From the NCBI GenBank assembly GCA_026129095.1, contig JAHCIT010000006.1, positions 1 through 64,000 of the forward strand: a stretch of 64,000 nucleotides of DNA, in the 5' to 3' direction. This document shows, one piece after another, positions 8,092 to 40,164 of this stretch. Source of the stretch: Deltaproteobacteria bacterium (GTDB lineage: Bacteria; JAGRBM01; JAHCIT01). A program made the position numbers and the translations under genes. Numbering within the stretch: the stretch's first letter is position 1; each line of letters begins with the position of its first letter. The notes below the pieces were generated by a model. The model saw only the letters and a list, made by a program, of their open reading frames with translations. It had not been told where the DNA came from and did not search any database.

Positions 8092-8595
8092 TCAGCGGTC
8101 AAACCGCTTCAGCACTTCATCGGTAATATCCAGCGCAGGCCCTGCATAGATCACGTTGACAGAACTACGCTCGAATACCACGTCAATGTTTTTTTCCTTC
8201 GCAATCTGCTCGGTAAGCTCGCGCAGCCTGGACACCACTTCACCCGACAGTTGCTCGTCCTTGCGCTTGATCTCTTCCTCGTAGTCGGCCGAGCGGCGCT
8301 CGATCTGCCGCTGCTGGGCGCGGAGCTGGTCCTCGCGTTCAGCAATCTGCGAAGGAGTCATGACCAGCCGTTTCTGCCGGAATTCATCCATGTCCTTTTC
8401 CAGATCCGACTGAAGTTTCAGCAGCGCCTCGCGGCGGCGCGCCACCTCATCCTCGATTGCCTGCCGGTGCGTGCGGCCTTTTTTGGAAGTGCCGATCACC
8501 TTGTGGAAATCAACAATGGCAAAAGTCGTTGCCCACGCCGGCATGGCACCGCCAAGCACAACTGCCGTCATGGCCATCAGGAACAGCTTACGCAT
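8092..8595 (-). CDS. OmpH/Skp-family periplasmic chaperone
   Basis: A 167-residue protein with a cleavable signal peptide (cleavage expected after MPAWA, residue 22). A short beta strand (TTFAIVDFHKVIGTSKKG) is followed by a long charged coiled coil (about 45-130) and a C-terminal strand segment (IDVVFERSSVNVIYAGPALD IT). This is the OmpH/Skp layout. Skp chaperones unfolded outer-membrane proteins through the periplasm. The gene lies 15 bases after the lipid kinase, in the same minus-strand series. Skp is usually found beside bamA and lpx genes, so the setting here is unusual; this may be a specialised paralogue. Confidence 0.85.
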   Translation of the reverse strand: MRKLFLMAMTAVVLGGAMPAWATTFAIVDFHKVIGTSKKGRTHRQAIEDEVARRREALLKLQSDLEKDMDEFRQKRLVMTPSQIAEREDQLRAQQRQIERRSADYEEEIKRKDEQLSGEVVSRLRELTEQIAKEKNIDVVFERSSVNVIYAGPALDITDEVLKRFDR

Positions 8596-8610: not shown

Positions 8611-9549
8611 TTAAAGACCCTTGAGCCGCAGGGCTCCGGGTATGATTTCAAAACTCGCCGGGCTTTCCCCGGCCAGTTCGCCGTCAATATCAATCAGAAC
8701 CCGGCCGGGCGAACTCACCTCGACCCGGCGGCCACGCCAGCATTTCACCTTCGGGATCGTTCCGGCAAGTCCGCGGTAAACCAGCCGTCCGAGCTGGACC
8801 GTTTCCAGGAAGGTGAGATCGCCAGTCACGACCACCTCGAACTGGCCGTCCGAGAGGGAGGCGTCCGGAGCGATCCTCATGCCGGCGCCAAAGCAGCGCC
8901 CATTAGCCACTGCCACCATGTATTGCGGGATTCCATCGGCAACGGTCTTGCCGTCCACGACGATCCGCATCGGCTGATTCCGGTAAGCAAGGCTGCCCCG
9001 GATACTACCCATGAGGAAACTGGCCTTGCCGCCAAATGCCTTCGTCGTCCGGTTTACTGCATCCACGACAAGACCGCCGACTCCCAGATCGGCGATGTTG
9101 ATGAAATACCTCTCGGCCGGCGCTCCCTCCGCCGGCTTCAGCCGAACCAGACCCACATCACAGGGGGAAGCGTCCCGGCCACGGAGCAACCGTGCGGCCT
9201 CGCGCACATCCTTCGGGAAACCATAGGACTTGATGAAGTCACAGCCAGTCCCGCGAGAAAGGACACCGAGGGCCATTCCCTCGCGCACCGGACGGCCATT
9301 ATCGAAAAATCCATTGACAACCTCGTTCAGGGTTCCGTCGCCGCCGACGGCGAGAATCATCTCCGCGCCCTCTTGTATTGCCCGGCGGGTGAGTTCGACA
9401 GCCTCCAGCGGCCGGGTAGTCATCTTCACCGCAATGGGCCCGAGTTCGGCTTCAAGCGCACTCCTGAGACTGTTCCACTCTTTCCCCGTCCGCCCGTTGG
9501 CGCTCCGGGGATTTACCACCGCGGCGGTGCGGAAATTTCCTCCCGTCAA
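8611..9549 (-). CDS. Diacylglycerol kinase-family lipid kinase (YegS/BmrU-like)
   Basis: A 312-residue protein of the DAGK catalytic-domain family. The nucleotide-binding signature GGDGTLNEVVNGFFD sits at about residues 63-77, followed by GVLSRGTGCDFIKS (the usual GTxNDF region) and a C-terminal beta-sandwich ending IDIDGEL. It should phosphorylate a lipid hydroxyl (diacylglycerol, alkylglycerol or similar) with ATP at the inner membrane. The start is a TTG overlapping the stop of the upstream Fe-S gene (TTGA), with a GGGGGTG Shine-Dalgarno, so translation is probably coupled. Together with the AGPS-like genes this suggests a role in phosphorylating ether-lipid intermediates, which is inference. 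Confidence 0.85.
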   Translation of the reverse strand: MTGGNFRTAAVVNPRSANGRTGKEWNSLRSALEAELGPIAVKMTTRPLEAVELTRRAIQEGAEMILAVGGDGTLNEVVNGFFDNGRPVREGMALGVLSRGTGCDFIKSYGFPKDVREAARLLRGRDASPCDVGLVRLKPAEGAPAERYFINIADLGVGGLVVDAVNRTTKAFGGKASFLMGSIRGSLAYRNQPMRIVVDGKTVADGIPQYMVAVANGRCFGAGMRIAPDASLSDGQFEVVVTGDLTFLETVQLGRLVYRGLAGTIPKVKCWRGRRVEVSSPGRVLIDIDGELAGESPASFEIIPGALRLKGL

Positions 9550-10655
9550 GCCTGCACCCCCAGCGAATGTGCCACGACATCAATCACGTCGAGCACTTCC
9601 ACGCCCGGACTGCTGGACTTGAGATGCTGTCCGCACAGTGGCGAAGCAGTTACCGTTTTCCGGGTTCCGGTTTCATAAAGCTCCTCCATGCGGCGGCGGG
9701 CCATCTTCTTCGCATCAGCAGGGAAAATGCGGGCGTACGCGCTGCCGGCCCCGCAGCAGCTCGTATCCTCGCCGCTCCAGGCGGGCTCACGTACCACAGC
9801 CCCGCACATTTTCAGCAGCTCCCGTATCCGGCCTGACGCACCCAGCTTCCGGGCTGCCTCACAGGGGTCATGGATGACGAGCGGCTCGGGAAACGCCCGC
9901 AACTCCCGGCCCGCGAGTTTTTCGCAGATCCAGTCCACCCACCAGACGACCTTGGGTGTCACCTTGATATTGACCCGGGGATAACCGTGCTGGAACATCA
10001 CGGCGTCCTCAGGCGCAACAGTAACGACCGTGTCGTAACCCTGGAGCGATGCCAGCACTTCAGACGCATGGGCACGGAGCCCTTCGCGATCACCGCAATG
10101 ATACAGTGCTGCACCGGTGTCGAGCCGTCCGGCGGCGATAACCGACACGTTTTCCGCTCCGACCGCATCGAGTATCCCCACCAGCTTCCGGATCCGCTCC
10201 CCGCCGGAGGCTATGAGATCCCCTCCCAGCCAGATGGCCGTACGGGCCTGCGGGCCACGATATTTTTCAGGGATGATCCCTGCGGCAACCGGCTCCAGCG
10301 GAACGTCATGGGGAGTTCCGGTCTCACGGACCTTTGCAGCCAGCTTCACGGCTGCCGGCAGCGTCTGCCCCGCCACGAACAGGTCGGCCCGTGCGGCCTC
10401 CAGAACCGGCCCCACCTTGATCTCGTGGTCACAGTACACCTTGCAATGGGCGCAGGCTGTACACTTGAAGAACGAGACGGCAAGATCCGGACTCGTCTCC
10501 ACCGAACCCTGCTTCAGCAGATAGGCCATCGTCATCTTGGCAGTGGGCGTATAGGTCTCGCGTGCGTCGGTTTCCGCCACCGGGCAGGCGAACCGGCACA
10601 TCTTCGGACAGTAGGTGCAGTAGTCGATTTCCCTTCGGAACGATTCGATCAGCAC
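9546..10655 (-). CDS. GlpC-like iron-sulfur protein (two 4Fe-4S clusters plus CCG domain)
   Basis: A 369-residue protein. Two N-terminal 4Fe-4S motifs are visible: CTYCPKMCRFACP (about residues 13-25) and CTACAHCKVYC (about 65-75). The C-terminal half carries Cys-rich CCG-type motifs (HDPCEAARKLG, then DTSCCGAGSAY, then SPLCGQHL). This matches the GlpC / GlcF / heterodisulfide-reductase HdrD family, which passes electrons from a flavoprotein to the quinone pool. In the same operon are GlpA, GlpB and two FAD oxidases, any of which could be its partner. Start is GTG. Length is close to E. coli GlpC, but the separation from glpAB by two AGPS-like genes is unusual. Confidence 0.85.
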   Translation of the reverse strand: MLIESFRREIDYCTYCPKMCRFACPVAETDARETYTPTAKMTMAYLLKQGSVETSPDLAVSFFKCTACAHCKVYCDHEIKVGPVLEAARADLFVAGQTLPAAVKLAAKVRETGTPHDVPLEPVAAGIIPEKYRGPQARTAIWLGGDLIASGGERIRKLVGILDAVGAENVSVIAAGRLDTGAALYHCGDREGLRAHASEVLASLQGYDTVVTVAPEDAVMFQHGYPRVNIKVTPKVVWWVDWICEKLAGRELRAFPEPLVIHDPCEAARKLGASGRIRELLKMCGAVVREPAWSGEDTSCCGAGSAYARIFPADAKKMARRRMEELYETGTRKTVTASPLCGQHLKSSSPGVEVLDVIDVVAHSLGVQA

Positions 10656-10684
10656 AGTTCTCGTTTCCTTTCGGCTTCCACCTG

Positions 10685-12109
10685 TTACAGCCCCAGCTTG
10701 CCGGGATTCAGTATCCCCGCCGGATCCACCGCCTGCTTGATGCCGCGGAATATCTCCTGAAACGGGCCATTCTGCCGGATGAGTGCATCCTGCTTGAGCG
10801 ACCCCACACCATGATGATGAGAGATCGTCCCCCCACTGGCTCCAACCGACGCCAGGAGATCATCCCAGAGCGTCCGGTACACCAGCAGGTCGTCCTCCGA
10901 ACCCGAATTGCCCATGAACGAGAAATACAGGCAGGCGCCTTCCGCATAAGCGTGAGAGAGGTGGCACAGCAGCATCGCACGGGCTCCGACGGTCCCCTTC
11001 ACCGCGGCATAGAGCTTCGGGATATCCTTCCAGAGGGCGGCCACCTCCATCGTGTCCAGGACCATTTTCGGATTGGGCAGGATGCGGCTGAGGTTGTAGT
11101 TAACGCCATAGCGGCGGCCGAACCAGTGTTCCACCGGCCCCGGACCCAGATCCACCGCGACGCCGCCGGCGAGTGATTCGATCTCGGCGAGATCAGCGTC
11201 GACCAGTTCGCTCTCACCCTCCACGGCCAGCAGCATCAGCGCTCCCTTGCCCACATTCAGCTTGAGGTGCTGGACCTGCAGGGCCGTGTCGGCTTCATCA
11301 TAAAGCCGAAGCAGCGACGGCCGGCAGCCCCGCTGGAGCAGTTCGCGGATGACCCGCTGGCCCGCGAGAAAGTCCTTGAAAAGGTACGCCTGGTATTCCT
11401 TTCGGGCCGGAAGCGGCCAGACCTCAAGCGTAGCCGCCGTAATCACCGCGAGCGTTCCCTCGCTGCCGATCAGGATCTGCCGCAGGTCAGGCCCCGCCGC
11501 CGAACGTGGGGCCGTCGTCGTGCGGAATATCTCGCCCGTAGGCAAAACCCCCTCCAGCCCCACCACCATATCCTCGATCTTGCCGTATTTCGTCGAGAGC
11601 TGGCCTGCCGAGCGGGCTGCAATCCAGCCGCCCACGGTGCTGCAGTATATGGACGACGGGAAATGGCCCATCGTGAACCCTTGGCGCTGGAGATTGCGCT
11701 CGAACCGCTCACCGTTCACACCGGCTTCTGCATGGACCGTGCTCGAAGTCTTCCGGACCGGAGCCATGCGGGAAAGCCGCTTGATGTCGAGCGTAATGCC
11801 CGCCTGCACCGGCACTGCCGCCCCGCACACACCGGAACCTCCGCCGTAAGTGGTAACCGGTATCTCCTCCTGCTGGGCCATCCGGAGCAGCCGCGAAATG
11901 TCGTCCACGTTCCTTGGGAACACCACCACATCGGGGAGTGAGGGCGGTAGCCCCCGGCGGAGTTCCAGCATCCCTCCCGGCATGCAGTCACGGCCGTAGA
12001 TGAGCCTGTCGTTCAGGTCAGCCGTGAACATCCCCTCGTCCCCCGAAAAAATGTCACGGATGAGAGCAAGGACACGCGATGAGGGTTCGGCGAACTCAGG
12101 CCGTCCCAA
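10685..12109 (-). CDS. FAD-binding alkyl-DHAP-synthase-like protein, copy 2
   Basis: A 474-residue flavoprotein of the VAO/PCMH family. The FAD-binding half has TYGGGSGVCGAAVP and the AGPS-like block HFPSSIYCSTVGGWIAARSA followed by KYGKIEDMVVG. The C-terminal substrate domain has CHLSHAYAEGACLYFSF and ISHHHGVGSLKQ. The His-triplet HHHGVG and the SHxYxxGxxIYFxF motif are hallmarks of alkyldihydroxyacetonephosphate synthase. GlcD-type glycolate oxidases lack them. AGPS swaps the acyl chain of acyl-DHAP for a fatty alcohol, making the ether bond. The start at 12109 (TTG) is preceded by an excellent GGGGAGGTGG and overlaps the upstream gene by 14 bases. It is clearly paralogous to the preceding gene. 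Confidence 0.82.
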   Translation of the reverse strand: MGRPEFAEPSSRVLALIRDIFSGDEGMFTADLNDRLIYGRDCMPGGMLELRRGLPPSLPDVVVFPRNVDDISRLLRMAQQEEIPVTTYGGGSGVCGAAVPVQAGITLDIKRLSRMAPVRKTSSTVHAEAGVNGERFERNLQRQGFTMGHFPSSIYCSTVGGWIAARSAGQLSTKYGKIEDMVVGLEGVLPTGEIFRTTTAPRSAAGPDLRQILIGSEGTLAVITAATLEVWPLPARKEYQAYLFKDFLAGQRVIRELLQRGCRPSLLRLYDEADTALQVQHLKLNVGKGALMLLAVEGESELVDADLAEIESLAGGVAVDLGPGPVEHWFGRRYGVNYNLSRILPNPKMVLDTMEVAALWKDIPKLYAAVKGTVGARAMLLCHLSHAYAEGACLYFSFMGNSGSEDDLLVYRTLWDDLLASVGASGGTISHHHGVGSLKQDALIRQNGPFQEIFRGIKQAVDPAGILNPGKLGL

Positions 12110-13850
12110 GGTCCACCTCCCCTTCCCCGCCAAACTCGCCAAAACCCAGTTTGCCGGGGTTCATCAGCATCTCCGGGTCCATTACCGCTTTCGCACCATC
12201 CAGTATCCGGGCCAGCGGCCCCATCTCGGTCCGCATGGCGTCGGCCTTCAGGATTCCAACTCCGTGATGGTGTGTGCAGGTTCCCCCGGCACGGTGACAG
12301 GCATCCAGCGCCAGCCGCCATGCCTGCCCGTAACGGGAACGGCAGTCTTCGAGATCGAAACCGCCTCCCATGAAAGTGAAATAAATCGACCCGCCGGTAC
12401 GGTAGGCATGGGAAAAATGCGCCATGACGATCGCTTCCCGGGAAAGTGCTTCCTTTACCCGCAAGTAGAGACCGAACAGGTGGTCCCAGTCGGCAGCGAC
12501 TTCCATCGTGTCCGCCCAGGCAAAATTGTCAAAAACGACCGACATCCGGTAGCTCACGGCATACCGTTTCTCGAACCAGTGCTGGGCGGGAGCTTCGCCA
12601 AGATCATGTCCGCCAAATTCGGCTGCGGTCCGCATGGCGATCTTGTGCTCAGCCTCGGTCCGCACCTGGCGGCCCTCGAACAGGTTGATGAACAGGCACT
12701 GCTTCGGAATAAACCCGGTCAGCCGGTTGAGGAGCGACGGAACCGAAAGCCCAAACCCCACCATGGTCCGCAACGGGCTCGGATACTGGACACGGGCAAG
12801 CGAAAGAACCGATTTGAACAGGCTATCGCGGGGAAGCGTCTCGGAATCCCGACCACGGTGGTCATCGGAAGCGCCTCCGCCGCCGGAGCGCCCCACCCCG
12901 CGTAGGGCAATAGCCGAATCCAGCTCGTCATAAAGGCGGGCCACGGCGGGCTTTACACCCTTCTGCATCAGCGCCCGCATGTAACCCATGCCGCTGGCGA
13001 GATCGGGGAACCTCCATCCCTGGAATATCCGGTGTTCAGGGAAGTGATGTACCCGGAGCCGGGCCGAGGTAACAAAACCGAGCGTGCCCTCCGAACCAGC
13101 AAACAGGTGGTTCCAGTCCGGTCCGGTAGCCGACCGTGGCACAGGGAGCGTGGACGCCAGTCGTCCGTCGGGAAGCACAAGGTCCAGCCCGACCATCATG
13201 TCCTCGATTTTTCCGTAGCGGGAACTCATCTGACCGGCAGAGCGGGCAGCAATCCAGCCTCCCACAGTGCTGCTATATATCGAGGACGGGAAATGACCGA
13301 GCGTATATCCCTGCTGGTTCAGCCACCGCTCAAGACGCTCGCCGTTTACTCCAGCCTCCACATGGACCACCTGGCTCTCACGGTCGAGGTCGAGAATGCG
13401 GTTAAGCCCCTTGATGTCCACCGGGATACTGCCCTCAAGAGGGACTGCGCCGCCACAGACACCTGACCCGCCACCATAAGGCGTCAGCTTCACCTTCTTT
13501 TCACGAGCGGCCTCGACGGCTTTCTGGAGCTTTTTCACCGAATCCACGAACAGGACTGCTTCCGGTGCCATACCCGGATCGCCGTCGCGGACGCCCATCG
13601 TGAGAAACGGCCAGCAGTCGCGGGCAAATGTAAGTGTGTCCGGCTTTGCTGTGGAGAGGCCGCCACGTCCTCCGGCCGTCCTGAGAGCGGCAACAGCCGA
13701 AGACGCTCTGGGCTTCTTGGCCCGTGAACCTGCGCGCCTGCGCGAGGGCTTAACACCCTCACCCGCGGCCTCCTGCTTTGGCGGCTTCCTACCTGCCAAT
13801 GGCCTGTTTCCCTTCCTGCTGTTTCCCGGCTGCCAGCTGTTCTCCGGCAA
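12096..13850 (-). CDS. FAD-binding alkyl-DHAP-synthase-like protein, copy 1
   Basis: A 584-residue VAO/PCMH flavoprotein. A basic, low-complexity N-terminus (about 1-65, RRRAGSRAKKPRASS) precedes the FAD domain (PYGGGSGVCGGAVP; HFPSSIYSSTVGGWIAARSA; RYGKIEDMMVG; LFAGSEGTLGFVTSARL). The C-terminal domain has AHFSHAYRTGGSIYFTF and CTHHHGVGILKADA. These AGPS-type motifs argue for ether-bond formation on DHAP rather than glycolate oxidation. It is about 110 residues longer than copy 2, with an insertion around residues 300-380 (VGRSGGGGASDDHRG) as well as the N-terminal tail. The start is uncertain: the first in-frame candidate is a TTG overlapping glpB by 62 bases, with no strong Shine-Dalgarno. 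Confidence 0.8.
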   Translation of the reverse strand: MPENSWQPGNSRKGNRPLAGRKPPKQEAAGEGVKPSRRRAGSRAKKPRASSAVAALRTAGGRGGLSTAKPDTLTFARDCWPFLTMGVRDGDPGMAPEAVLFVDSVKKLQKAVEAAREKKVKLTPYGGGSGVCGGAVPLEGSIPVDIKGLNRILDLDRESQVVHVEAGVNGERLERWLNQQGYTLGHFPSSIYSSTVGGWIAARSAGQMSSRYGKIEDMMVGLDLVLPDGRLASTLPVPRSATGPDWNHLFAGSEGTLGFVTSARLRVHHFPEHRIFQGWRFPDLASGMGYMRALMQKGVKPAVARLYDELDSAIALRGVGRSGGGGASDDHRGRDSETLPRDSLFKSVLSLARVQYPSPLRTMVGFGLSVPSLLNRLTGFIPKQCLFINLFEGRQVRTEAEHKIAMRTAAEFGGHDLGEAPAQHWFEKRYAVSYRMSVVFDNFAWADTMEVAADWDHLFGLYLRVKEALSREAIVMAHFSHAYRTGGSIYFTFMGGGFDLEDCRSRYGQAWRLALDACHRAGGTCTHHHGVGILKADAMRTEMGPLARILDGAKAVMDPEMLMNPGKLGFGEFGGEGEVDLGTA

Positions 13851-15165
13851 GATAGCCCGTCAGGAGTGCCGCACCGAGTCCCGTTCCGCCACGAAGGTAG
13901 TCATAACCCGAGAGGATATTCCCGCAAGCGACAAGATTGCGGGCGACCATCTGGCACCGGCCATCCAGCGGGCGTAAATCTGGTCCCACGGCCACGCCTG
14001 CCCGGAACGCCGGATGAGGGCCCTCCGGGGCGCGGCTGAACAGTTCCTCCGGCTGGCGAGAGAGTATTTCACGGCCATCCAGAAATACCGGGAGGCCGAA
14101 TACCGATTCCCGGAGCCGCTTTTCACGGATCATGCCACCGCCCGCGAACTTGCCCGTCGCCAGCACAAAATCATTGGCCCGGATGACTTCTTCCGGTTCA
14201 CCGGGGTTTTTCCTGACAGCAACGCCTGAAACCACCCCGCCCCCGATTTCCCCCTTCACGATATCGCAGTGGATCGTCTCCACTCCGGCTGCCGAAAGCG
14301 CCCGGTCCAGCGCCAGCTGAAGCCGCACACCGGGCACCGATGGGACAGACGAAACCGATTCCGCCACCCGGCATCCCAGTTTTTCGCCGGCCCGGCGTAC
14401 GGACTCCGCTGCCCGCATGAATCCGAATACTGGCGGAACGACAAGGATATCGAACGTCGCCGAGCCTACTCCCACCCGGATTTTCTCGATCACCCTGTCG
14501 AACATCCCGCTGTCTTCAAGAAGCGAGGCGCACCCCAGCGCGTTCGCATTGTACCCGGTTGATTCATCCAGTTCGATGTCGAACCCGCGCACACGCGGCG
14601 GATTGTAGGCCGACATGAGGTGCCCAAAGACCTGAGCGGCCCGTTCGCCGTCCCACCCGGGTATGCCCCGGATGCCGCAGAAACCGACCCGCTTCCTTTT
14701 CAGCACATCGCCTTCCGGCAGTTCCATGGACGCCTGCAGGAGGGCTGTCTGCTTGAGAGTACCCGCCTGCGTCACCGCAATCAGGTTCTGGCGGCCGTCT
14801 CCCGCAAACGGAAGACCTGTACAATCTTCCAGCGCCCGGCGCGCAAGGGAAAAAGCTGTCAGAAGCCGTCCGGCCCTTTGCCCCGGACTTTCGCTGCGGG
14901 ACGTCAGGAGGCTGAACAGGTGCGCCGGATTACGGGCGATCTCCCGCTCAACAAGCACTTCCAGTCCGGTTTCGTTCGGAAGCGGTGTCGCTGACGTCGT
15001 ATCCGGATCGGCAACGAGATCCAGCGCGCCGGAGGAAACCGCCGTAGCTGCCCCACCCCGGCGAAGCAGCACCACCCGGCGGCCTGAGCGGGCTGCGATC
15101 CAGGCGGCAAGCGAACCGGCCAGCCCGCCACCCAATACGGCGACATCGGCGTGCTTTTCAGCCAT
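13789..15165 (-). CDS. glpB: Anaerobic glycerol-3-phosphate dehydrogenase subunit B (GlpB-like)
   Basis: A 458-residue flavoprotein with an N-terminal dinucleotide-binding GGGLAGSLAAWIAARSGRRV (residues 11-30), the AVSSGALDLV motif typical of GlpB, and a C-terminal GNILSGYDYLRGGTGLGAAL. GlpB is the second subunit of the GlpABC complex, which oxidises sn-glycerol-3-phosphate to DHAP under anaerobic conditions. Its start overlaps the glpA stop by 8 bases, so the pair is translationally coupled. DHAP produced here is the precursor needed by the AGPS-like enzymes downstream. Confidence 0.85.
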   Translation of the reverse strand: MAEKHADVAVLGGGLAGSLAAWIAARSGRRVVLLRRGGAATAVSSGALDLVADPDTTSATPLPNETGLEVLVEREIARNPAHLFSLLTSRSESPGQRAGRLLTAFSLARRALEDCTGLPFAGDGRQNLIAVTQAGTLKQTALLQASMELPEGDVLKRKRVGFCGIRGIPGWDGERAAQVFGHLMSAYNPPRVRGFDIELDESTGYNANALGCASLLEDSGMFDRVIEKIRVGVGSATFDILVVPPVFGFMRAAESVRRAGEKLGCRVAESVSSVPSVPGVRLQLALDRALSAAGVETIHCDIVKGEIGGGVVSGVAVRKNPGEPEEVIRANDFVLATGKFAGGGMIREKRLRESVFGLPVFLDGREILSRQPEELFSRAPEGPHPAFRAGVAVGPDLRPLDGRCQMVARNLVACGNILSGYDYLRGGTGLGAALLTGYLAGEQLAAGKQQEGKQAIGR

Positions 15166-16873
15166 GTGCGGCGAGGTTCTCTCCGGATTCCGGCGCCACT
15201 GCTGCCCGGCGCCACTCTTCGAACAGTCCTGCGGGCGGGACGGCGGCGGTGAGATTCAGCGTGCAGTAGTGATTCGCCTGGTGAAGTTCTTCCTGGGCAA
15301 GTTGCTCCCCTTCCAGCACCGGGAACTTCCCTTTCCAGCGGTTGGCGACGAAATCCCGGAGTTCTTCAAGCTGCCGGGCGCCCGTTAGCCGGTGCTCCCG
15401 GGCGAGGATGCAGGAGGCCGCCTGCGAGCAGCGCATTCCCTGACAGGGGCCTGTACCAAGCCGTGTGCGGCGGCGGACGTCGGACAGCTTTGACGCCCAT
15501 TCGGTCCGGCAGGCGTAAGCAATTTCGGCACCTGTCACAGGCTCGCAGGGGCAGACCAGCGACTGAAGCCCCGGTTCCTCCTGCGAAATCTCCACGATCT
15601 TCTCCGCCCGCGCCCCGTGCCGGAAATGGATACGGCCGAGCGCGAATTCCGGTAGCGGCCCTTTTGCGGCAAGCTCGGAAAGATTCAGTTCCCGCTCGCC
15701 GCCAGCCAGCGGCACTTCATGTGTCCGGCAGGGAACATGGCCGCGGCCGATGGCTGCTTCCACCGCGTCCACGGCCTCCTCGCTCATGATCCGGTAAGCG
15801 GCGAGCTTTCCACCCGACATAGACAGCAGGTTTCGTGCACCGTCCCTGATGCCGTGATCCACGATCCGGTGGTCACGCGAGAGCTTGTCCTCGTTCTTGT
15901 GCCATGCCCACAAGGTCGGCCGGACACCCACCATTACGCGCGTCACGCGGGCTTCCCGCACCTGTGGAAACGAACGGGCGATACCCTCCAGCAGGTATTC
16001 GATTTCGTCCTCGGTAACGGTGAGGTTGTCGAGATCGCCGTAGAAATCATCGTCCGTGGTTCCGACGATCGCACCATTATCATGGGGGATGATAAAAATC
16101 TGGCGGCCGTCGGCGGCATCGCAGAGAATCCCCGTATTCACGACGCGCCTGTCGAGAATCAGGTGAACGCCTTTTCCCTTGCGGAGCCTCAGGCCGACCC
16201 CTGCCTTCGCCAGTACGTCCGGGTTCCAAGGGCCGCAGGCGATGAAAACCACCTTCGCCTTCTCCTCATAGATCCGGCCTGTGCGATGGTCCTCCAGCCG
16301 GACGCCAGTCACTGAATCGCCGTCTCTTAGGAATGTGAGCAGTTCCGTATGGTTCCGGATCACGGCGCCGTGCTCAGCCGCCGAAAGCGCGGTCGCCGCG
16401 CAAAGCCGGAAGGGATCGATACCGTATTCGTCCATCGTGACGGCCCCGTCCACCGACCGGGCAAGGCCCGGCTCGATCGCGAGCACTTCTTCACGATTCA
16501 GACGCGTATGCTTCTTGCCGTTCTTGTAGGGCTGGAAGAGGTCGTATCCCTCGAAATAGGTTTCCATCGCCTCGGCCATGACCCGGCTGGCGAAGCTCCG
16601 GCGCGAGACGGGAATGAGGAACGGTATGCGGAACAGCATGTGCGGGGCGCACTTCTGGATATAGCCGGAATCGACACAGGACTTTTTCGTCGTCTGGATG
16701 TCGTAGAGCATGTAACGTGCGCCACCGTGGATCATGCCACTGCAGCCGCCGGTGGCTCCGGACGAGAAATCGCGCTTTTCGACGAGCAGGACTTTCATCC
16801 CCCGGATGGCCGCATCCCGGGCGATGCCGCAGCCGTTTACGCCGCCACCGATGATGATAAGATCATAGGACAT
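15158..16873 (-). CDS. glpA: Anaerobic glycerol-3-phosphate dehydrogenase subunit A (GlpA-like)
   Basis: A 571-residue FAD enzyme. The N-terminal FAD site is IIIGGGVNGCGIARDAAIRG, followed by SSGATGGCSGMIHGGARY, characteristic of GlpA/GlpD. The C-terminal third contains a BFD-type [2Fe-2S] motif (CPCEPVTGAEI with a later GTGPCQGMRCSQ), which GlpA has and aerobic GlpD lacks in this form. It converts glycerol-3-phosphate to DHAP and hands electrons on through GlpB and GlpC. It is the first gene of the overlapping series glpA-glpB-AGPS-AGPS-glpC-like-lipid kinase. A 108-base gap separates it from the TPR gene upstream, so a promoter may lie there, but none is obvious. Confidence 0.9.
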   Translation of the reverse strand: MSYDLIIIGGGVNGCGIARDAAIRGMKVLLVEKRDFSSGATGGCSGMIHGGARYMLYDIQTTKKSCVDSGYIQKCAPHMLFRIPFLIPVSRRSFASRVMAEAMETYFEGYDLFQPYKNGKKHTRLNREEVLAIEPGLARSVDGAVTMDEYGIDPFRLCAATALSAAEHGAVIRNHTELLTFLRDGDSVTGVRLEDHRTGRIYEEKAKVVFIACGPWNPDVLAKAGVGLRLRKGKGVHLILDRRVVNTGILCDAADGRQIFIIPHDNGAIVGTTDDDFYGDLDNLTVTEDEIEYLLEGIARSFPQVREARVTRVMVGVRPTLWAWHKNEDKLSRDHRIVDHGIRDGARNLLSMSGGKLAAYRIMSEEAVDAVEAAIGRGHVPCRTHEVPLAGGERELNLSELAAKGPLPEFALGRIHFRHGARAEKIVEISQEEPGLQSLVCPCEPVTGAEIAYACRTEWASKLSDVRRRTRLGTGPCQGMRCSQAASCILAREHRLTGARQLEELRDFVANRWKGKFPVLEGEQLAQEELHQANHYCTLNLTAAVPPAGLFEEWRRAAVAPESGENLAAHG

Positions 16874-32273: not shown

Positions 32274-33479
32274 TTATGCCTGCTTTCCGCTCTTGCTGTC
32301 CGTCGCGCCGACCAGCACCACCATCTTACCCTGATGCTTGTTTTCGTACATAAGCTGATGGACATGCGGAATCTTGTCGAAGTCGAACACATCGTCCACG
32401 ACCGGAACAATTTTCTTTTCCATGATGAGCTGATTTGCCCGGTGGCATTCATAGGCATTGGCGAAGTGTGAGCCCAGGATTTCCTTCTGGCGCATCCAGA
32501 GATACCGAACGTCGAAGTTCAGCTCGAAACCGCTCGTGGCGCCGCAAATCACGATTTTGCCAAACTTTTTGGCGACGAACACCGACGTGGAGAACGTCTC
32601 AGCGCCCACATGCTCGAACACCACGTCCACGTCCTGACCGCCGGTGATTTCGCGCACGGCCTTGCCGAAGGCGCGCATCATCGTGATCTCATCCTTCTTG
32701 GCTTCTGGCGTCGTGGCAATTCCCTGCGGGAACTTGAACTGCTTGCGGTTGATGTAACCAACGGCGCCCAGCTTCTTCACCATCTCACCCTTGGCATCGC
32801 TAGACACCACGCCAATGGCGTTCGCGCCGTAGAGCTTGCAGAGCTGTATGGCGAAAATACCAAGGCCCCCGGCGGCCCCCCACACGAGTACCCAGTCGCC
32901 GGCCTGTATCTTTGCCCGGGTAATGAGCATCCGGTAGGCCGTGCAGTAGGTCAGCGCGTAACTCGCCGCATCGGTCCAGGTAAGGTGTTTTGGCTTCGGG
33001 AGAAGCTGCTGTGACTGGACCTTGGTAAACTGGGCGAAGCTGCCCCAGTTCGTCTCGTATCCCCAGATCTGCTGCTGCTCGCAGGCCATCGGGTCGCGGC
33101 CGTTGCAGGCTGGGCACTGGCCGCAGGACTGGTTGCAGTGAATGACCACCTCATCGCCGGGCTTCCAGAGCTTCACCTCGGAGCCGACCTTCCAGACGAT
33201 TCCAGCGGCATCGGAACCGCCGATGTGGAAGGTGTCCTTGCGGGCCTTGATGATGGAAATGGGCTTTCCGAGTGCCGCCCACACGTTGTTGTAGTTGATA
33301 CCGGCAGCCATCACGAGGACGAGCACCTCGTTGGCCCCGATTTCCGGCACGTCAATCAGCTCCCGCTGGAAGGCAGTCTTGGGTTCGCTCTCGCGCTCCG
33401 GGCGAATCACATAGGCGTGCATCTTCTTCGGCAGTTCGCCGATCTTGGAGGGGACGGTTCCGATATCGAAGGTTTCCAT
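32274..33479 (-). CDS. ccr: Crotonyl-CoA carboxylase/reductase-family MDR enzyme
   Basis: A 401-residue zinc-independent medium-chain dehydrogenase/reductase. Diagnostic Ccr-type blocks are GGSDAAGIVWKVGSEV, IHCNQSCGQCPACNGRDPMA, IWGYETNWGSFAQFTKVQ and ASYALTYCTAYRML; the NADPH site is VWGAAGGLGIFAIQLCK. Family enzymes reduce crotonyl-CoA with NADPH, carboxylating reductases producing ethylmalonyl-CoA. The E of YETNWG corresponds to a CO2-pocket residue region in known Ccr, so carboxylation is possible. No other ethylmalonyl-CoA pathway gene is seen nearby. It could serve polyketide extender or PHB-linked metabolism. The gene is preceded by an 18-bp perfect palindrome. AAGGTGG precedes the ATG. 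Confidence 0.85.
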   Translation of the reverse strand: METFDIGTVPSKIGELPKKMHAYVIRPERESEPKTAFQRELIDVPEIGANEVLVLVMAAGINYNNVWAALGKPISIIKARKDTFHIGGSDAAGIVWKVGSEVKLWKPGDEVVIHCNQSCGQCPACNGRDPMACEQQQIWGYETNWGSFAQFTKVQSQQLLPKPKHLTWTDAASYALTYCTAYRMLITRAKIQAGDWVLVWGAAGGLGIFAIQLCKLYGANAIGVVSSDAKGEMVKKLGAVGYINRKQFKFPQGIATTPEAKKDEITMMRAFGKAVREITGGQDVDVVFEHVGAETFSTSVFVAKKFGKIVICGATSGFELNFDVRYLWMRQKEILGSHFANAYECHRANQLIMEKKIVPVVDDVFDFDKIPHVHQLMYENKHQGKMVVLVGATDSKSGKQA

Positions 33480-36700: not shown

Positions 36701-37330
36701 ATGAGCGGAACAGAGACACCCGGGCCGGGAGCGGCGGGAATACCCCGGCGCAGCTTTCTCAAGGTGGGCGCCATTGGGACTGCCGCCGTTGCCGCGGGCG
36801 GAGTCGCCCTCGCGCTCCGTCAGACTGTTTTGCGCGATCTCCCCAAGGATGGCCTGATGGTCTTCACACCAAAGGAATACGCCATCTTCGCAGCAGTGGC
36901 GGATATTGTCTGTCCGCCGCGTGCCGAGGGTGTTCCGAATGCGACCGACCTCGACGTCGCCCGCACGGCCGACCGGCAGCTGGCCAAACTGGATGTTGCC
37001 GTCCAGAAAGAGTTCAAGATCCTTCTCAATCTGTTCGATAGCGCGCTCGCCGGTTTCCTGTTCGACGGCCGCCTGAAGCCGTTCACGCAGCTTTCCCCGG
37101 CCAAACAGGCCGAGGCTTTCATGGCGTGGGGAGATTCGGGAGTCCCCTTCCGTCGCACCGCTTTTGAAGCCCTGAAGCGGCTAGCTGGCGCGATGTACTA
37201 CATCCAGCCTTCCATCTGGGAACGGACTGGTTACAACGGTCCGCCGGACGTGAGCGGATATCGCGAAGCGATACGCCAGAAACGGGAAGCTGCCGCCCGC
37301 GAGGCTCCGGCCCCGGAGGAACCCCGCTGA
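36701..37330 (+). CDS. Gluconate 2-dehydrogenase subunit 3-like protein with Tat signal
   Basis: A 209-residue protein beginning with a twin-arginine signal (PRRSFLKVGAIGTAAVAAGG, about residues 15-34). The mature part matches the gluconate 2-dehydrogenase subunit 3 family (FTPKEYAIFAAVADIVCPP; LLNLFDSALAGFLFDGR; FTQLSPAKQAEAFMAW). In characterised systems this small subunit helps export or stabilise a partner GMC flavoprotein. The gene overlaps the GMC gene by one base (TGATG), so the two products should form a complex exported together by Tat. Confidence 0.88.
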   Translation: MSGTETPGPGAAGIPRRSFLKVGAIGTAAVAAGGVALALRQTVLRDLPKDGLMVFTPKEYAIFAAVADIVCPPRAEGVPNATDLDVARTADRQLAKLDVAVQKEFKILLNLFDSALAGFLFDGRLKPFTQLSPAKQAEAFMAWGDSGVPFRRTAFEALKRLAGAMYYIQPSIWERTGYNGPPDVSGYREAIRQKREAAAREAPAPEEPR

Positions 37331-38874
37331 TGGCCATTTACCGGGGCACGGAACTGGAGAAAGACCTCTCGCTGGAATGCGACGTCTGCATCGTGGGATC
37401 GGGAGCAGGCGGTGCCCATGTGGCGGCGCGGCTCGCGGCCGCCGGCAAGCGGGTGATCGTTCTGGAAGAAGGCGGCTACTACACCAGCGACGATTTCAAC
37501 ATGGACGAAGCGGAGATGTTCCATCATCTCTACCAGGAACACGCCAACCGGGCGACAGCCGATCTCTCCATCTCCATCCTTCAGGGCCGCTCTGTCGGCG
37601 GAACGACGACAGTCAACTGGACAACGAGCTTCCGGACGCCGAAGCCGGTCATGGACTACTGGGCCGGCCGGTTCGGCGTCGAGAACCTCACCTACGATGC
37701 CCTCGTCCCACACTGGGAACGGGTGGAGGAACGCCTCAATATCCGCGAAGTCCCGCTGGATTTCATGAACCGGAACAACCGGGTGCTCTGGGACGGCGCG
37801 ACGAAGCTCGGATGGGAGCCCCACCTCCTGAAACGCAACGTCCGCGACTGCGCCTCACTCGGGTACTGCGGCATGGGCTGTCCCTTGGATGCCAAGCAGT
37901 CGATGCTGGTAACCATGATCCCCGAGGCCGTGGACCATGGCGCGGATGTCTATGCGAACGTCCGTGTCCAGACCATCGAGTCCGAGGGAAGCCGGATATC
38001 GAAGGTGAACGGTGTTGCCATGCACCCGGACGGAAACCGGACCACCAGCCGGACGATTACGGTCCGGTCGAAGGTGACGGTGCTCTCCGGGGGGGCCATC
38101 AACAACCCCGCCCTGCTCCTCAGGTCGAAGCTGGGCAACCGCAACGGCCGGGTCGGGAAGCGCACCTTCCTGCATCCGGTTATCGCCTCGGCCGCCATAT
38201 TCGACGACCCGATCGAGCCCTTTTACGGCGCGCCGCAGTCAGTGGCATCGCACTACTTCCAGGATCGCGGGCCGGACAAAATGGGATTCTTCATCGAAGC
38301 GGCCCCGATCTTCCCTGTCTTCGGCGGATCGGCCTCCCCCGGCATCGGCAAGGATCTGCAGGAGATCATGGACGCCCTGTACCGGATGAACGCGACCGTC
38401 GCGATCGGTATTGACGGTTTCGACGACAAGGATCTGGACGAGGGCGCCACTGTGACGCTGAAGGACGGCGGCCATCCGAAAATCGACTACAAGTGGACGC
38501 CGCGCCTGTCGGAAATGCTCCGCGAGGGAAACAAGCGGGTCGTCGAGATCCAGCTTGCCGCCGGAGCGGCCTATACCCAGTCGTTCCATACTCGCGGGGT
38601 AAAGATCAGGTCGACATCCGAGCTGTCGAAACTGGATTCGGCACCCTATGAGCCCAACCGGGTCAAATGTTTCACCGCGCACCAGATGGGCGGCTGTATC
38701 ATGGGCAAGGATCCGAAGGTTTCGGTGGTCGATTCCCGGCTGAAGCACCATGAGTTCGACAACCTGTTCATTATCGACGGATCGGTGTTCCCCACCTCGC
38801 TGGGCGTCAACCCGCAGCTCTCCATCTACGGCCTGTCATCGTGGGCCAGCCAGCACGTCATTGCGGCGGTGTAA
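37330..38874 (+). CDS. GMC-family FAD oxidoreductase
   Basis: A 514-residue flavoprotein. The N-terminal Rossmann FAD site is CDVCIVGSGAGGAHVAARLA with the acidic VIVLEEGG. It continues with LQGRSVGGTTTVNWTTSFR, a Cys-rich SLGYCGMGCPLDAKQS, and the C-terminal catalytic and FAD block TAHQMGGCIMG with FIIDGSVFPTSLGVNPQLS. This is the pattern of the gluconate/sorbitol/long-chain alcohol dehydrogenase group of GMC enzymes. It has no signal of its own, so piggyback export with the Tat-targeted subunit is likely. The substrate is probably an alcohol or polyol; a cytochrome partner is not seen in the window. Confidence 0.9.
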   Translation: MAIYRGTELEKDLSLECDVCIVGSGAGGAHVAARLAAAGKRVIVLEEGGYYTSDDFNMDEAEMFHHLYQEHANRATADLSISILQGRSVGGTTTVNWTTSFRTPKPVMDYWAGRFGVENLTYDALVPHWERVEERLNIREVPLDFMNRNNRVLWDGATKLGWEPHLLKRNVRDCASLGYCGMGCPLDAKQSMLVTMIPEAVDHGADVYANVRVQTIESEGSRISKVNGVAMHPDGNRTTSRTITVRSKVTVLSGGAINNPALLLRSKLGNRNGRVGKRTFLHPVIASAAIFDDPIEPFYGAPQSVASHYFQDRGPDKMGFFIEAAPIFPVFGGSASPGIGKDLQEIMDALYRMNATVAIGIDGFDDKDLDEGATVTLKDGGHPKIDYKWTPRLSEMLREGNKRVVEIQLAAGAAYTQSFHTRGVKIRSTSELSKLDSAPYEPNRVKCFTAHQMGGCIMGKDPKVSVVDSRLKHHEFDNLFIIDGSVFPTSLGVNPQLSIYGLSSWASQHVIAAV

Positions 38875-38913
38875 ATCTCCCCGGCTCCTTGCGGCACCAG
38901 ATGAGCCGCGCTA

Positions 38914-38948
38914 GATAATCCGTTCCGCTGAATGACTGTTCATTCAGC
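38914..38948 (+). promoter_or_regulatory. Promoter and FadR-like operator of the acyl-CoA dehydrogenase gene
   Basis: A -10 box GATAAT (38914-38919) is followed by a perfect 9-bp inverted repeat, GCTGAATGA (38927-38935) and TCATTCAGC (38940-38948), with a 4-base centre. The core TGAATGACTGTTCATTCA matches the Bacillus FadR consensus TGAATGAMTANTCATTCA at all but one defined position. It would cover the transcription start. Repression lifted by long-chain acyl-CoA is the expected control. The -35 is weak. Confidence 0.65.
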
Positions 38949-38967
38949 ATGGAAGGGAGTCCGACAC

Positions 38968-40164
38968 ATGCCGCTCGATTTCACCATGCCCGACGAACTC
39001 AAGCAGATCCGCGCCTCGGCCGAAAAGATGGTCCGAAAGTTCGATCCCGTGATCGAGCAGATGCGGCACGACATTCATGTCAACCGCCGGTTTCCGCAGG
39101 AGCTGTGGGACGCCGCCGCCGAGGCGGGATTTCTCGGCGCGCTGGTGCCCGAAGCCTATGGCGGTACCGATATCGGCATCACGGCGATGGGCGTGGCGAT
39201 GGAGACCATGACCTCGCACGGCCTGGGCAATGTCCTGTTCGTGCTGACGCCGATGGACGCGCTCTGCATCCTCCGGCACGGCTCCGAGGAGATGAAAAAG
39301 GAGTACCTGCCGCAGATCGCCAGCGGAAAGCTCAAGTTCTGCTTTGCCATTACCGAGCCGGACGCGGGTTCCAACACCTTCCGGATCACCACGCACGCGA
39401 AGAAGGATGGCGACGACTACGTCATCAACGGCCAGAAGACCTTTATTACCGGTGCCGACGTGGCCGACTACATGCTGCTCGTGACGCGAACGACGCCGTA
39501 CGAGGATCTCAAGGCAAAGAACCTGCCCAAGACCCATGGTTTTGGCCTCTTTATCGTTCCGACGAACATCAAGGGACTGGAAAAGCGGAAAATCCCCACC
39601 CACGGCATCGAGGGAATGAACCAGTTCACGCTGTTCCTCGATAATGTGCGCCTTCCGGCCCGCAGCCTCGTGGGCCAGCACGACCAGGGCTTTCTCCCTA
39701 TGTTCGAGGCGCTGAACCCCGAACGCATCCTGGCAGGATTTTCGGCATCGGGCTCCATTGATTACCTCCTCTCACGGGCAGTGAAATACGCCAAGGAGAG
39801 GAGCGTGTTCGGCGGCAAGCCGATCGGGGCCTACCAGGGAATCCAGCACCCGCTGGCCGAGATCAAGATCGAGGCGGAAGCGATGCGTCTCATGACCTAC
39901 AAGGCGGCCTGGGCCTATGACGCCAAGCTCCCGGCTACCGAGGTCGGCACCTATGCCAACTACGCCAAATACCTGGCCGCCGAAATTGCCATCAAGGCGG
40001 CAGACCGGGCCATTCAGACCATGGGCGGATACGGATTCTCCGAGGAATACGGCGTCATCCACCACTGGACCGGGATGCGCCTGATGCGAACGGCGCCTGT
40101 CTCGAAGGAGATGATCCTCTCGTTCGTGAGCGAGCATATCCTGGGCCTGCCGCGCAGCTACTGA
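38968..40164 (+). CDS. Acyl-CoA dehydrogenase
   Basis: A 398-residue ACAD. Blocks are ITEPDAGSNTFRITTHA, YVINGQKTFITGADVAD, ERSVFGGKPIGAYQGIQHP and TMGGYGFSEEYGVIHHWTGM. The C-terminus reads TAPVSKEMILSFVSEHILGL instead of YEGTxxIQ, and I cannot point to a Glu at either classical catalytic position. Many FadE-like relatives share this ending. The start is set at 38968 because the earlier ATG at 38932 lies inside the palindromic operator and must precede or overlap the transcription start. AGGGAG is upstream. A strong terminator hairpin follows the gene. Confidence 0.9.
   Translation: MPLDFTMPDELKQIRASAEKMVRKFDPVIEQMRHDIHVNRRFPQELWDAAAEAGFLGALVPEAYGGTDIGITAMGVAMETMTSHGLGNVLFVLTPMDALCILRHGSEEMKKEYLPQIASGKLKFCFAITEPDAGSNTFRITTHAKKDGDDYVINGQKTFITGADVADYMLLVTRTTPYEDLKAKNLPKTHGFGLFIVPTNIKGLEKRKIPTHGIEGMNQFTLFLDNVRLPARSLVGQHDQGFLPMFEALNPERILAGFSASGSIDYLLSRAVKYAKERSVFGGKPIGAYQGIQHPLAEIKIEAEAMRLMTYKAAWAYDAKLPATEVGTYANYAKYLAAEIAIKAADRAIQTMGGYGFSEEYGVIHHWTGMRLMRTAPVSKEMILSFVSEHILGLPRSY

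What the first reader, a model, noticed from the sequence alone, without database searches (positions are those of the whole stretch)
8611..16873. Candidate ether-lipid locus built on an anaerobic glycerol-3-phosphate dehydrogenase
glpA and glpB are followed without gaps by two AGPS-like genes, a GlpC-like Fe-S protein and a YegS-type lipid kinase. GlpAB makes DHAP; AGPS converts acyl-DHAP to alkyl-DHAP; the kinase can phosphorylate lipid alcohols. The AGPS HHHGVG and SHxYxxG motifs are present in both copies. A glp-AGPS fusion of this kind would couple electron transfer to ether-lipid synthesis, which to my knowledge is not a standard arrangement.
Basis: partly seen in the sequence, partly recalled or inferred. 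Interest (0 to 1): 0.72.

Follow-up and report, generated by a model that had tools for sequence, protein, structure and literature searches.

The report
AGPS-type enzyme operon with lipid kinase
A six-gene bacterial operon joins a glycerol-3-phosphate dehydrogenase, two relatives of the human ether-lipid enzyme AGPS, an iron-sulfur protein and a lipid kinase; close versions of it recur across bacteria and archaea, and it more likely breaks down or recycles glyceryl-ether lipids than makes them, though this is untested.

Summary
A tight minus-strand operon (16873 to 8611) encodes GlpA-like, GlpB-like, two AGPS-like flavoproteins, an Fe-S protein and a YegS lipid kinase. Both flavoproteins belong to the AGPS family, not GlcD, by sequence, tree (GlcD placement rejected, p-AU 1e-49), active-site residues and predicted fold. 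They lie outside the clade of the solved eukaryotic AGPSs and lack its Arg515.

The arrangement is not unique. AGPS relatives in many bacterial and archaeal phyla sit beside a G3P dehydrogenase, an Fe-S partner and a kinase. The kinase is YegS or FGGY, never both, in 47 of 68 adequately covered loci. Some relatives lie in importer, aldehyde dehydrogenase and enoyl-CoA hydratase operons. Mycobacterial Rv2249c-Rv2252 has the same layout. The Fe-S protein is not GlpC; it belongs to an AGPS-partner type, often with a degenerate second AGPS.

I favour a pathway that phosphorylates a glyceryl ether or lipid, oxidises C2, then cleaves C1-O by AGPS chemistry (0.42). Ether-lipid synthesis (0.25) stays open: the assembly lacks GpsA and PlsY but has a PlsB-type acyltransferase. 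No enzyme activity or lipid was tested.

The parts
15158..16873 (-). GlpA-like FAD glycerol-3-phosphate dehydrogenase with BFD-type [2Fe-2S] domain (P0006, 571 aa); first gene of the operon
   Evidence: Pfam DAO, DAO_C, Fer2_BFD; TIGR03377 389 bits, below cut-off; 33% to E. coli GlpA; keeps G3P-oxidase signatures against GlpO; only good G3PDH homologue in the genome
13789..15165 (-). GlpB-like flavoprotein (P0005, 458 aa)
   Evidence: NCBIfam GlpB models, best 189 bits, all below cut-off; 28.5% to E. coli GlpB
12096..13850 (-). AGPS-family flavoprotein, first copy (P0004, up to 584 aa; true start may lie downstream of 13850)
   Evidence: best solved relatives are AGPS 2uuu/4bby; AGPS active-site residues kept, Arg515 equivalent absent; in-frame starts listed
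10685..12142 (-). AGPS-family flavoprotein, second copy (P0003, 485 aa), intact active-site motifs
   Evidence: AlphaFold model pLDDT 87 matches AGPS structures best
9546..10655 (-). Fe-S protein with two [4Fe-4S]-type Cys motifs and one CCG domain (P0002, 369 aa), AGPS-partner type rather than GlpC
   Evidence: Fer4_8 and CCG; 41% and 30% to CCG proteins next to AGPS in other genomes, 22% to GlpC
8611..9549 (-). YegS/DgkB-type lipid kinase (P0001, 312 aa)
   Evidence: TIGR00147 136.8 bits, above cut-off 118.65; DgkB/YegS structures
8092..8595 (-). Skp/OmpH-like chaperone, 15 nt downstream; probably co-transcribed but not part of the function proposed
   Evidence: OmpH; also follows YegS in the same-order genome G001 (L037)

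Best explanation
The operon encodes an AGPS-based glyceryl-ether (or glycerolipid) cleavage and recycling pathway. YegS phosphorylates the free primary alcohol of a 1-O-substituted glycerol such as an alkylglycerol. GlpAB oxidises C2 to give the 1-O-substituted DHAP. The AGPS proteins then use the flavin-N5 chemistry known for AGPS to break the C1-O bond, releasing DHAP and the long-chain alcohol (or, if the step is oxidative, an aldehyde). The Fe-S protein takes electrons from the flavoproteins to the membrane. Shown here: gene content and order, AGPS-family membership, retained active-site residues, recurrent linkage to a kinase and a G3P dehydrogenase, and the Fe-S partner being of an AGPS-associated type. 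Inferred: substrate, direction, order of steps and electron flow.
For: AGPS fold and catalytic residues. In 68 loci with at least 3 kb on each side, 28 have YegS and 19 an FGGY kinase, none both. Kinase type changes 5 times on the AGPS tree, which suggests two kinases filling one step. G3PDH-type genes (GlpA/D or GlpB) lie near in 29 of 68. Relatives occur in import/catabolic operons: ABC importer + GlpD + AGPS + FGGY + aldehyde dehydrogenase + enoyl-CoA hydratases + Fe-ADH + thioesterase in Paracoccus; LacI + AGPS + FGGY + UgpC-type ABC importer in Labrenzia and Shinella; GlpK + GlpD in Microbacterium; GlpD + FGGY + MFS + LacI in Novosphingobium. The genome has 29 acyl-CoA dehydrogenase domain hits, and the window itself carries aldehyde dehydrogenase, GMC oxidoreductase, two acyl-CoA dehydrogenases and a thiolase. 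The Fe-S partner and the degenerate beta paralogue in 13 of 35 CCG loci resemble the GlcD-GlcE-GlcF plan, pointing to redox coupling that AGPS synthesis does not need.
Against: The catabolic contexts belong mostly to FGGY-type relatives outside the window's own clade, so the transfer is an extrapolation. No transporter, ADH or beta-oxidation gene lies inside this operon. Sorangium AGPS genes, which group with the window's relatives, sit next to phosphatidylserine decarboxylase, a lipid-synthesis sign. AGPS cleavage of alkyl-DHAP by water and GlpA acting on alkyl-G3P are not documented in anything I read. Kinase exclusivity is not corrected for shared ancestry beyond the tree count, and the loci are the 80 best matches plus chosen ones.
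Confidence: 0.42

Rival explanations
1. Ether-lipid synthesis, possibly DHAP-first. A PlsB-type enzyme acylates DHAP, AGPS swaps the acyl for an alkyl chain, and GlpAB or another enzyme reduces alkyl-DHAP to alkyl-G3P; YegS salvages alkylglycerol or diacylglycerol.
For: AGPS family and residues. The assembly has no GpsA (neither domain; 66 of 78 compared genomes have it) and no PlsY, but a PlsB-type 846-aa acyltransferase (G000:C4:7180-9720). M. xanthus AGPS homologue MXAN_1676 makes a minor contribution to ether lipids (PMC9131029). Sorangium AGPS lies beside phosphatidylserine decarboxylase.
Against: No acyltransferase or fatty acyl-CoA reductase is in the operon; the best PF07993 hits in the genome are short generic SDRs (at most 64.5 bits). 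GlpA is oxidase-like and DHAP is already available from glycolysis. The Fe-S partner and kinase have no role in this pathway. GlpK is present, so G3P can come from glycerol. GpsA could be missing because the assembly is 96.65% complete.
Confidence: 0.25
2. A GlcDEF-like dehydrogenase complex built on the AGPS fold. The two AGPS proteins plus the Fe-S protein oxidise a phosphorylated or lipid substrate that is not an ether, and pass electrons to quinone.
For: The AGPS / degenerate-beta / CCG order copies the GlcD-GlcE-GlcF plan. AGPS-CCG adjacency occurs in Myxococcota, Bdellovibrionota and several archaeal groups. Arg515 and Asp303 of AGPS are changed in this clade.
Against: The GlcD metal motif HxGDGNxH and its Glu are absent while AGPS residues R419, Y578 and H615-H617 are kept. 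In the window both copies are intact, so neither is a GlcE-like dead subunit.
Confidence: 0.23
3. Ordinary anaerobic glycerol-3-phosphate catabolism (GlpABC) with two unrelated flavoproteins and a lipid kinase that happen to share the operon.
For: GlpA and GlpB homologues, and a GlpK elsewhere in the genome.
Against: The AGPS-kinase-G3PDH association recurs far too widely for coincidence, and P0002 is not GlpC.
Confidence: 0.05

Closest known systems
Eukaryotic AGPS (guinea pig 4bby, Dictyostelium 2uuu), alkylglycerone-phosphate synthase
   Same: Fold (TM-score 0.86 by query), FAD domain, and residues H300, T309, R419, Y578, H615-H617
   Different: About 31% identity (P0003); Arg515 absent and Asp303 is Ser; separate clade; linked to kinase, GlpAB and Fe-S protein
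Mycobacterial Rv2249c (glpD1) - Rv2250c - Rv2251 (flavoprotein) - Rv2252 (diacylglycerol kinase)
   Same: G3P dehydrogenase, AGPS-like flavoprotein and YegS-family kinase together; same layout in Streptomyces and Tsukamurella
   Different: GlpD instead of GlpAB, a TetR regulator, single AGPS, no Fe-S partner; the actinobacterial AGPS groups with eukaryotic AGPS. I did not fetch the Rv genes themselves
M. xanthus MXAN_1676-1674 (AGPS, FAR-GNPAT fusion, epimerase)
   Same: AGPS-family enzyme with a minor, genetically shown role in ether lipids (PMC9131029)
   Different: Neighbours are synthesis genes (FAR/GNPAT) rather than kinase, GlpAB and Fe-S protein
Glycolate dehydrogenase GlcDEF
   Same: FAD subunit, degenerate FAD paralogue and CCG Fe-S protein in a row (as in the Myxococcota relatives)
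   Different: Window FAD proteins are AGPS-type and both intact; GlcD motifs absent; GlcD placement rejected
GlpABC anaerobic glycerol-3-phosphate dehydrogenase
   Same: GlpA- and GlpB-like subunits
   Different: Two AGPS genes where glpC would be; P0002 not GlpC-like

Membership tests
AGPS family (broad) | FAD_binding_4 plus FAD-oxidase_C domains with AGPS as the nearest solved relatives | tested here: met
AGPS family (broad) | Phylogenetic placement with AGPS, outside GlcD | tested here: met
   GlcD versus AGPS split 100/100; window inside GlcD rejected, p-AU 1.2e-49
AGPS family (broad) | Residues H300, T309, R419, Y578, H615-H617 | tested here: met
   both copies
Classical (eukaryotic-type) AGPS | Arg515 and membership in the eukaryotic AGPS clade | tested here: not met
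   L/M at 515; eukaryotic clade 100/100 without the window copies; a forced joint clade was not tested to the end
Classical (eukaryotic-type) AGPS | Alkyl-DHAP synthase activity | not testable with these tools
   needs enzyme assay
GlcD / D-lactate dehydrogenase family | HxGDGNxH and GEHGIG metal-site motifs | tested here: not met
GlpABC | GlpC-type membrane Fe-S subunit | tested here: not met
   P0002 22% to GlpC, E 1e-5; 41%/30% to AGPS-linked CCG proteins
GlpABC | GlpA and GlpB above curated equivalog cut-offs | tested here: not met
YegS/Rv2252/BmrU lipid kinases | TIGR00147 above cut-off | tested here: met
   136.8 vs 118.65 bits
Ether-lipid synthesis pathway | DHAP acyltransferase and fatty alcohol source in the genome | tested here: inconclusive
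   PlsB-type acyltransferase present, substrate unknown; no strong FAR
Ether-lipid synthesis pathway | Ether lipids in the membrane | not testable with these tools
   no lipid data

The most novel reading that the evidence does not exclude
A widespread, oxygen-independent pathway that cleaves glyceryl ethers: a kinase (YegS for lipids, FGGY for soluble glyceryl ethers), a GlpA/GlpD C2 oxidase and an AGPS-fold C1-O lyase, the last with its own Fe-S electron partner and, in Myxococcota, a dead second subunit. Eukaryotic AGPS would then descend from such a bacterial module. It would offer an enzymatic route for ether-lipid turnover in anoxic sediments.
Probability: 0.3. Interest if true: 0.85.

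Novelty: new variant of a known kind. Interest (0 to 1): 0.57.

Why it matters
AGPS homologues in metagenomes are being read as evidence for alkenyl/alkyl ether-lipid synthesis (e.g. PMC11868695). If most sit in kinase-dehydrogenase-AGPS modules that degrade or recycle glyceryl ethers, that inference fails. How ether lipids are turned over in nature is poorly known (PMC12718374 calls archaeal lipid turnover poorly studied). The layout match with M. tuberculosis Rv2249c-Rv2252 makes the question testable in cultured actinobacteria.

Tried and rejected
GlcD/lactate-oxidase identity: rejected by motifs, tree, AU test and fold search. GlpC identity of P0002: rejected. 'Unusual arrangement': rejected by neighbourhood survey. 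A test that window copies plus all GlcD form one side of a branch was uninformative (p-AU 0.345) because on an unrooted tree it only asks whether the window copies branch deepest in AGPS. The test joining window copies with the eukaryotic clade did not finish. The two window copies paired as sisters only in the quick tree (81) and not in the careful one, so a recent tandem duplication is not shown. PF07993 as a fatty acyl-CoA reductase marker was too loose: all 14 controls match. Literature searches for an AGPS catabolic role or an AGPS-kinase operon found nothing direct; papers outside the open-licence library could not be read. Sigma-70 promoter scan found nothing. MXAN_1676 itself was not recovered, so its place in the tree is unknown.
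Full report
WHAT IS THERE. The region holds six minus-strand genes from 16873 down to 8611: GlpA-like (P0006), GlpB-like (P0005), two AGPS-like flavoproteins (P0004, P0003), an Fe-S protein (P0002) and a YegS-type kinase (P0001). Neighbouring genes overlap or lie 29 nt apart, with a 108-nt gap upstream, so this is very probably one operon. A Skp/OmpH gene follows after 15 nt. In the only same-order genome (G001) the CCG, YegS and OmpH genes, and the end of an AGPS gene, keep this order up to the contig end.

THE FLAVOPROTEINS ARE AGPS-FAMILY. The best solved relatives of P0003 and P0004 are Dictyostelium and guinea-pig AGPS, far ahead of GlcD/LDHD. P0003's predicted structure (mean pLDDT 87) matches AGPS chains first (TM-score 0.86 by query), D-lactate dehydrogenase later. 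On a 65-protein tree the GlcD group is split from all AGPS-type proteins with 100/100 support, and forcing the window copies into GlcD is rejected (p-AU 1.2e-49). In guinea-pig numbering both copies keep H300, T309, R419, Y578 and H615-H617; GlcD proteins carry P, variable, E, H and (G/A)EH there. R419 and Y578 are the positions mutated in PDB entries 4bc7 and 4bca, which points to their importance. Arg515, kept in both eukaryotic enzymes and all 9 bacterial members of their clade, is Leu/Met in the window copies and mostly Gln in their relatives; Asp303 is Ser. So they are AGPS-family proteins of a different subtype, and I do not file them as classical AGPS.

THE ARRANGEMENT RECURS. Layouts include AGPS-CCG-YegS in Myxococcota, other deltaproteobacteria and Bdellovibrionota; GlpA-GlpB-CCG-AGPS-CCG with an FGGY kinase in Jordarchaeum; AGPS-CCG-GlpA-FGGY in Brockarchaeota and Thermoplasmata; GlpB-AGPS-YegS in Chloroflexi; and GlpD/TetR/AGPS/YegS in actinobacteria, which is the Rv2249c-Rv2252 layout listed in PMC4564863. 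Of 68 loci with at least 3 kb on both sides, 28 have YegS, 19 FGGY and none both (Fisher p 4e-6, not corrected for ancestry). Among kinase-bearing loci the type changes 5 times on the tree. This is what one expects if two unrelated kinases fill the same step.

THE IRON-SULFUR PARTNER. P0002 resembles the CCG proteins that follow AGPS (41% and 30%) much more than E. coli GlpC (22%, E 1e-5). In L057 and Jordarchaeum there are CCG genes both after glpB and after AGPS; P0002 matches the AGPS-linked Jordarchaeum one (E 5e-29) better than those after glpB. In 13 of 35 loci with a CCG gene downstream of AGPS, a second protein between them has lost the HHHG and SHxY motifs, and all but one also lost the GGGSG motif (Pfam finds a partial FAD domain or none in the two scanned). 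That recalls GlcD-GlcE-GlcF. In the window and in G036 both copies are intact.

GENOME BACKGROUND. The assembly (96.65% complete) has no GpsA by either Pfam domain although 66 of 78 compared genomes do, and no PlsY (Corynebacterium, Bacteroides and the archaeal controls also lack it). It has a PlsB-type acyltransferase at G000:C4:7180-9720, a bona fide GlpK, no other good GlpA/GlpD homologue and 29 acyl-CoA dehydrogenase domain hits. Fatty acyl-CoA reductases could not be settled. The window also carries aldehyde dehydrogenase, GMC oxidoreductase, two acyl-CoA dehydrogenases and a thiolase, 11-25 kb from the operon.

HOW IT MOST LIKELY WORKS. Known AGPS chemistry exchanges the group on C1 of a DHAP ester through a flavin-N5 adduct and involves no net redox change (established knowledge; mechanism paper not in the library). 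A kinase and a C2 oxidase next to AGPS make sense if the starting material is an unphosphorylated 1-O-substituted glycerol: phosphorylate, oxidise C2, cleave C1-O. Catabolic relatives support this direction: the Paracoccus operon has importer, GlpD, AGPS, FGGY, aldehyde dehydrogenase, enoyl-CoA hydratases, Fe-ADH and thioesterase; others add LacI regulators and sugar-type importers. In the window a lipid-type kinase replaces FGGY, so I infer a lipid substrate. Inference enters at the substrate, the direction and the role of the Fe-S protein. Confidence 0.42.

RIVALS. Ether-lipid synthesis stays possible (0.25): GpsA and PlsY are absent while a PlsB-type acyltransferase is present, which fits a DHAP-first route, and Sorangium AGPS genes lie beside phosphatidylserine decarboxylase. 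A GlcDEF-like dehydrogenase of another substrate (0.23) would explain the Fe-S partner. Chance neighbours (0.05) are unlikely.

NOVELTY. The family is known, homologues have been counted in metagenomes as ether-lipid markers (PMC11868695), and the mycobacterial layout exists in annotation. I found no paper that describes the kinase-dehydrogenase-AGPS module, its alternative kinases, the Fe-S partner or the degenerate second subunit, but the searchable library is limited to open-licence papers. I therefore rate it a new variant of a known kind.

Noticed in passing
window 41686-63882 (-): A 7,398-aa open reading frame; the two stretches scanned hold RCC1/RLD repeats. A giant repeat protein of unknown role.
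   Followed up: partly
G000 whole assembly: No GpsA (neither domain) and no PlsY in a 96.65%-complete bacterial genome; PlsB-type acyltransferase and GlpK present. How it makes glycerol-3-phosphate is unclear.
   Followed up: partly
window 37330-40164 (+): GMC oxidoreductase followed directly by an acyl-CoA dehydrogenase, thiolase next on the other strand.
   Followed up: partly
window 32274-33479 (-): Crotonyl-CoA carboxylase/reductase above its curated cut-off (TIGR01751 516 vs 378.55 bits), suggesting an ethylmalonyl-CoA pathway.
   Followed up: no
L108:6770-11968 and L084: In Sorangium an AGPS gene lies two genes after phosphatidylserine decarboxylase, with a methyltransferase-domain protein between.
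   Followed up: partly
L054, L058, L061, L062, L065, L074, L077, L078, L085, L094, L124 and others: Degenerate AGPS paralogue without catalytic motifs between AGPS and the CCG gene; a candidate pseudo-enzyme subunit.
   Followed up: partly
L165 (Paracoccus jeotgali plasmid pCBA4604-01): Self-contained importer-GlpD-AGPS-FGGY-ALDH-enoyl-CoA hydratase-ADH-thioesterase operon, an attractive model for testing glyceryl-ether catabolism.
   Followed up: no
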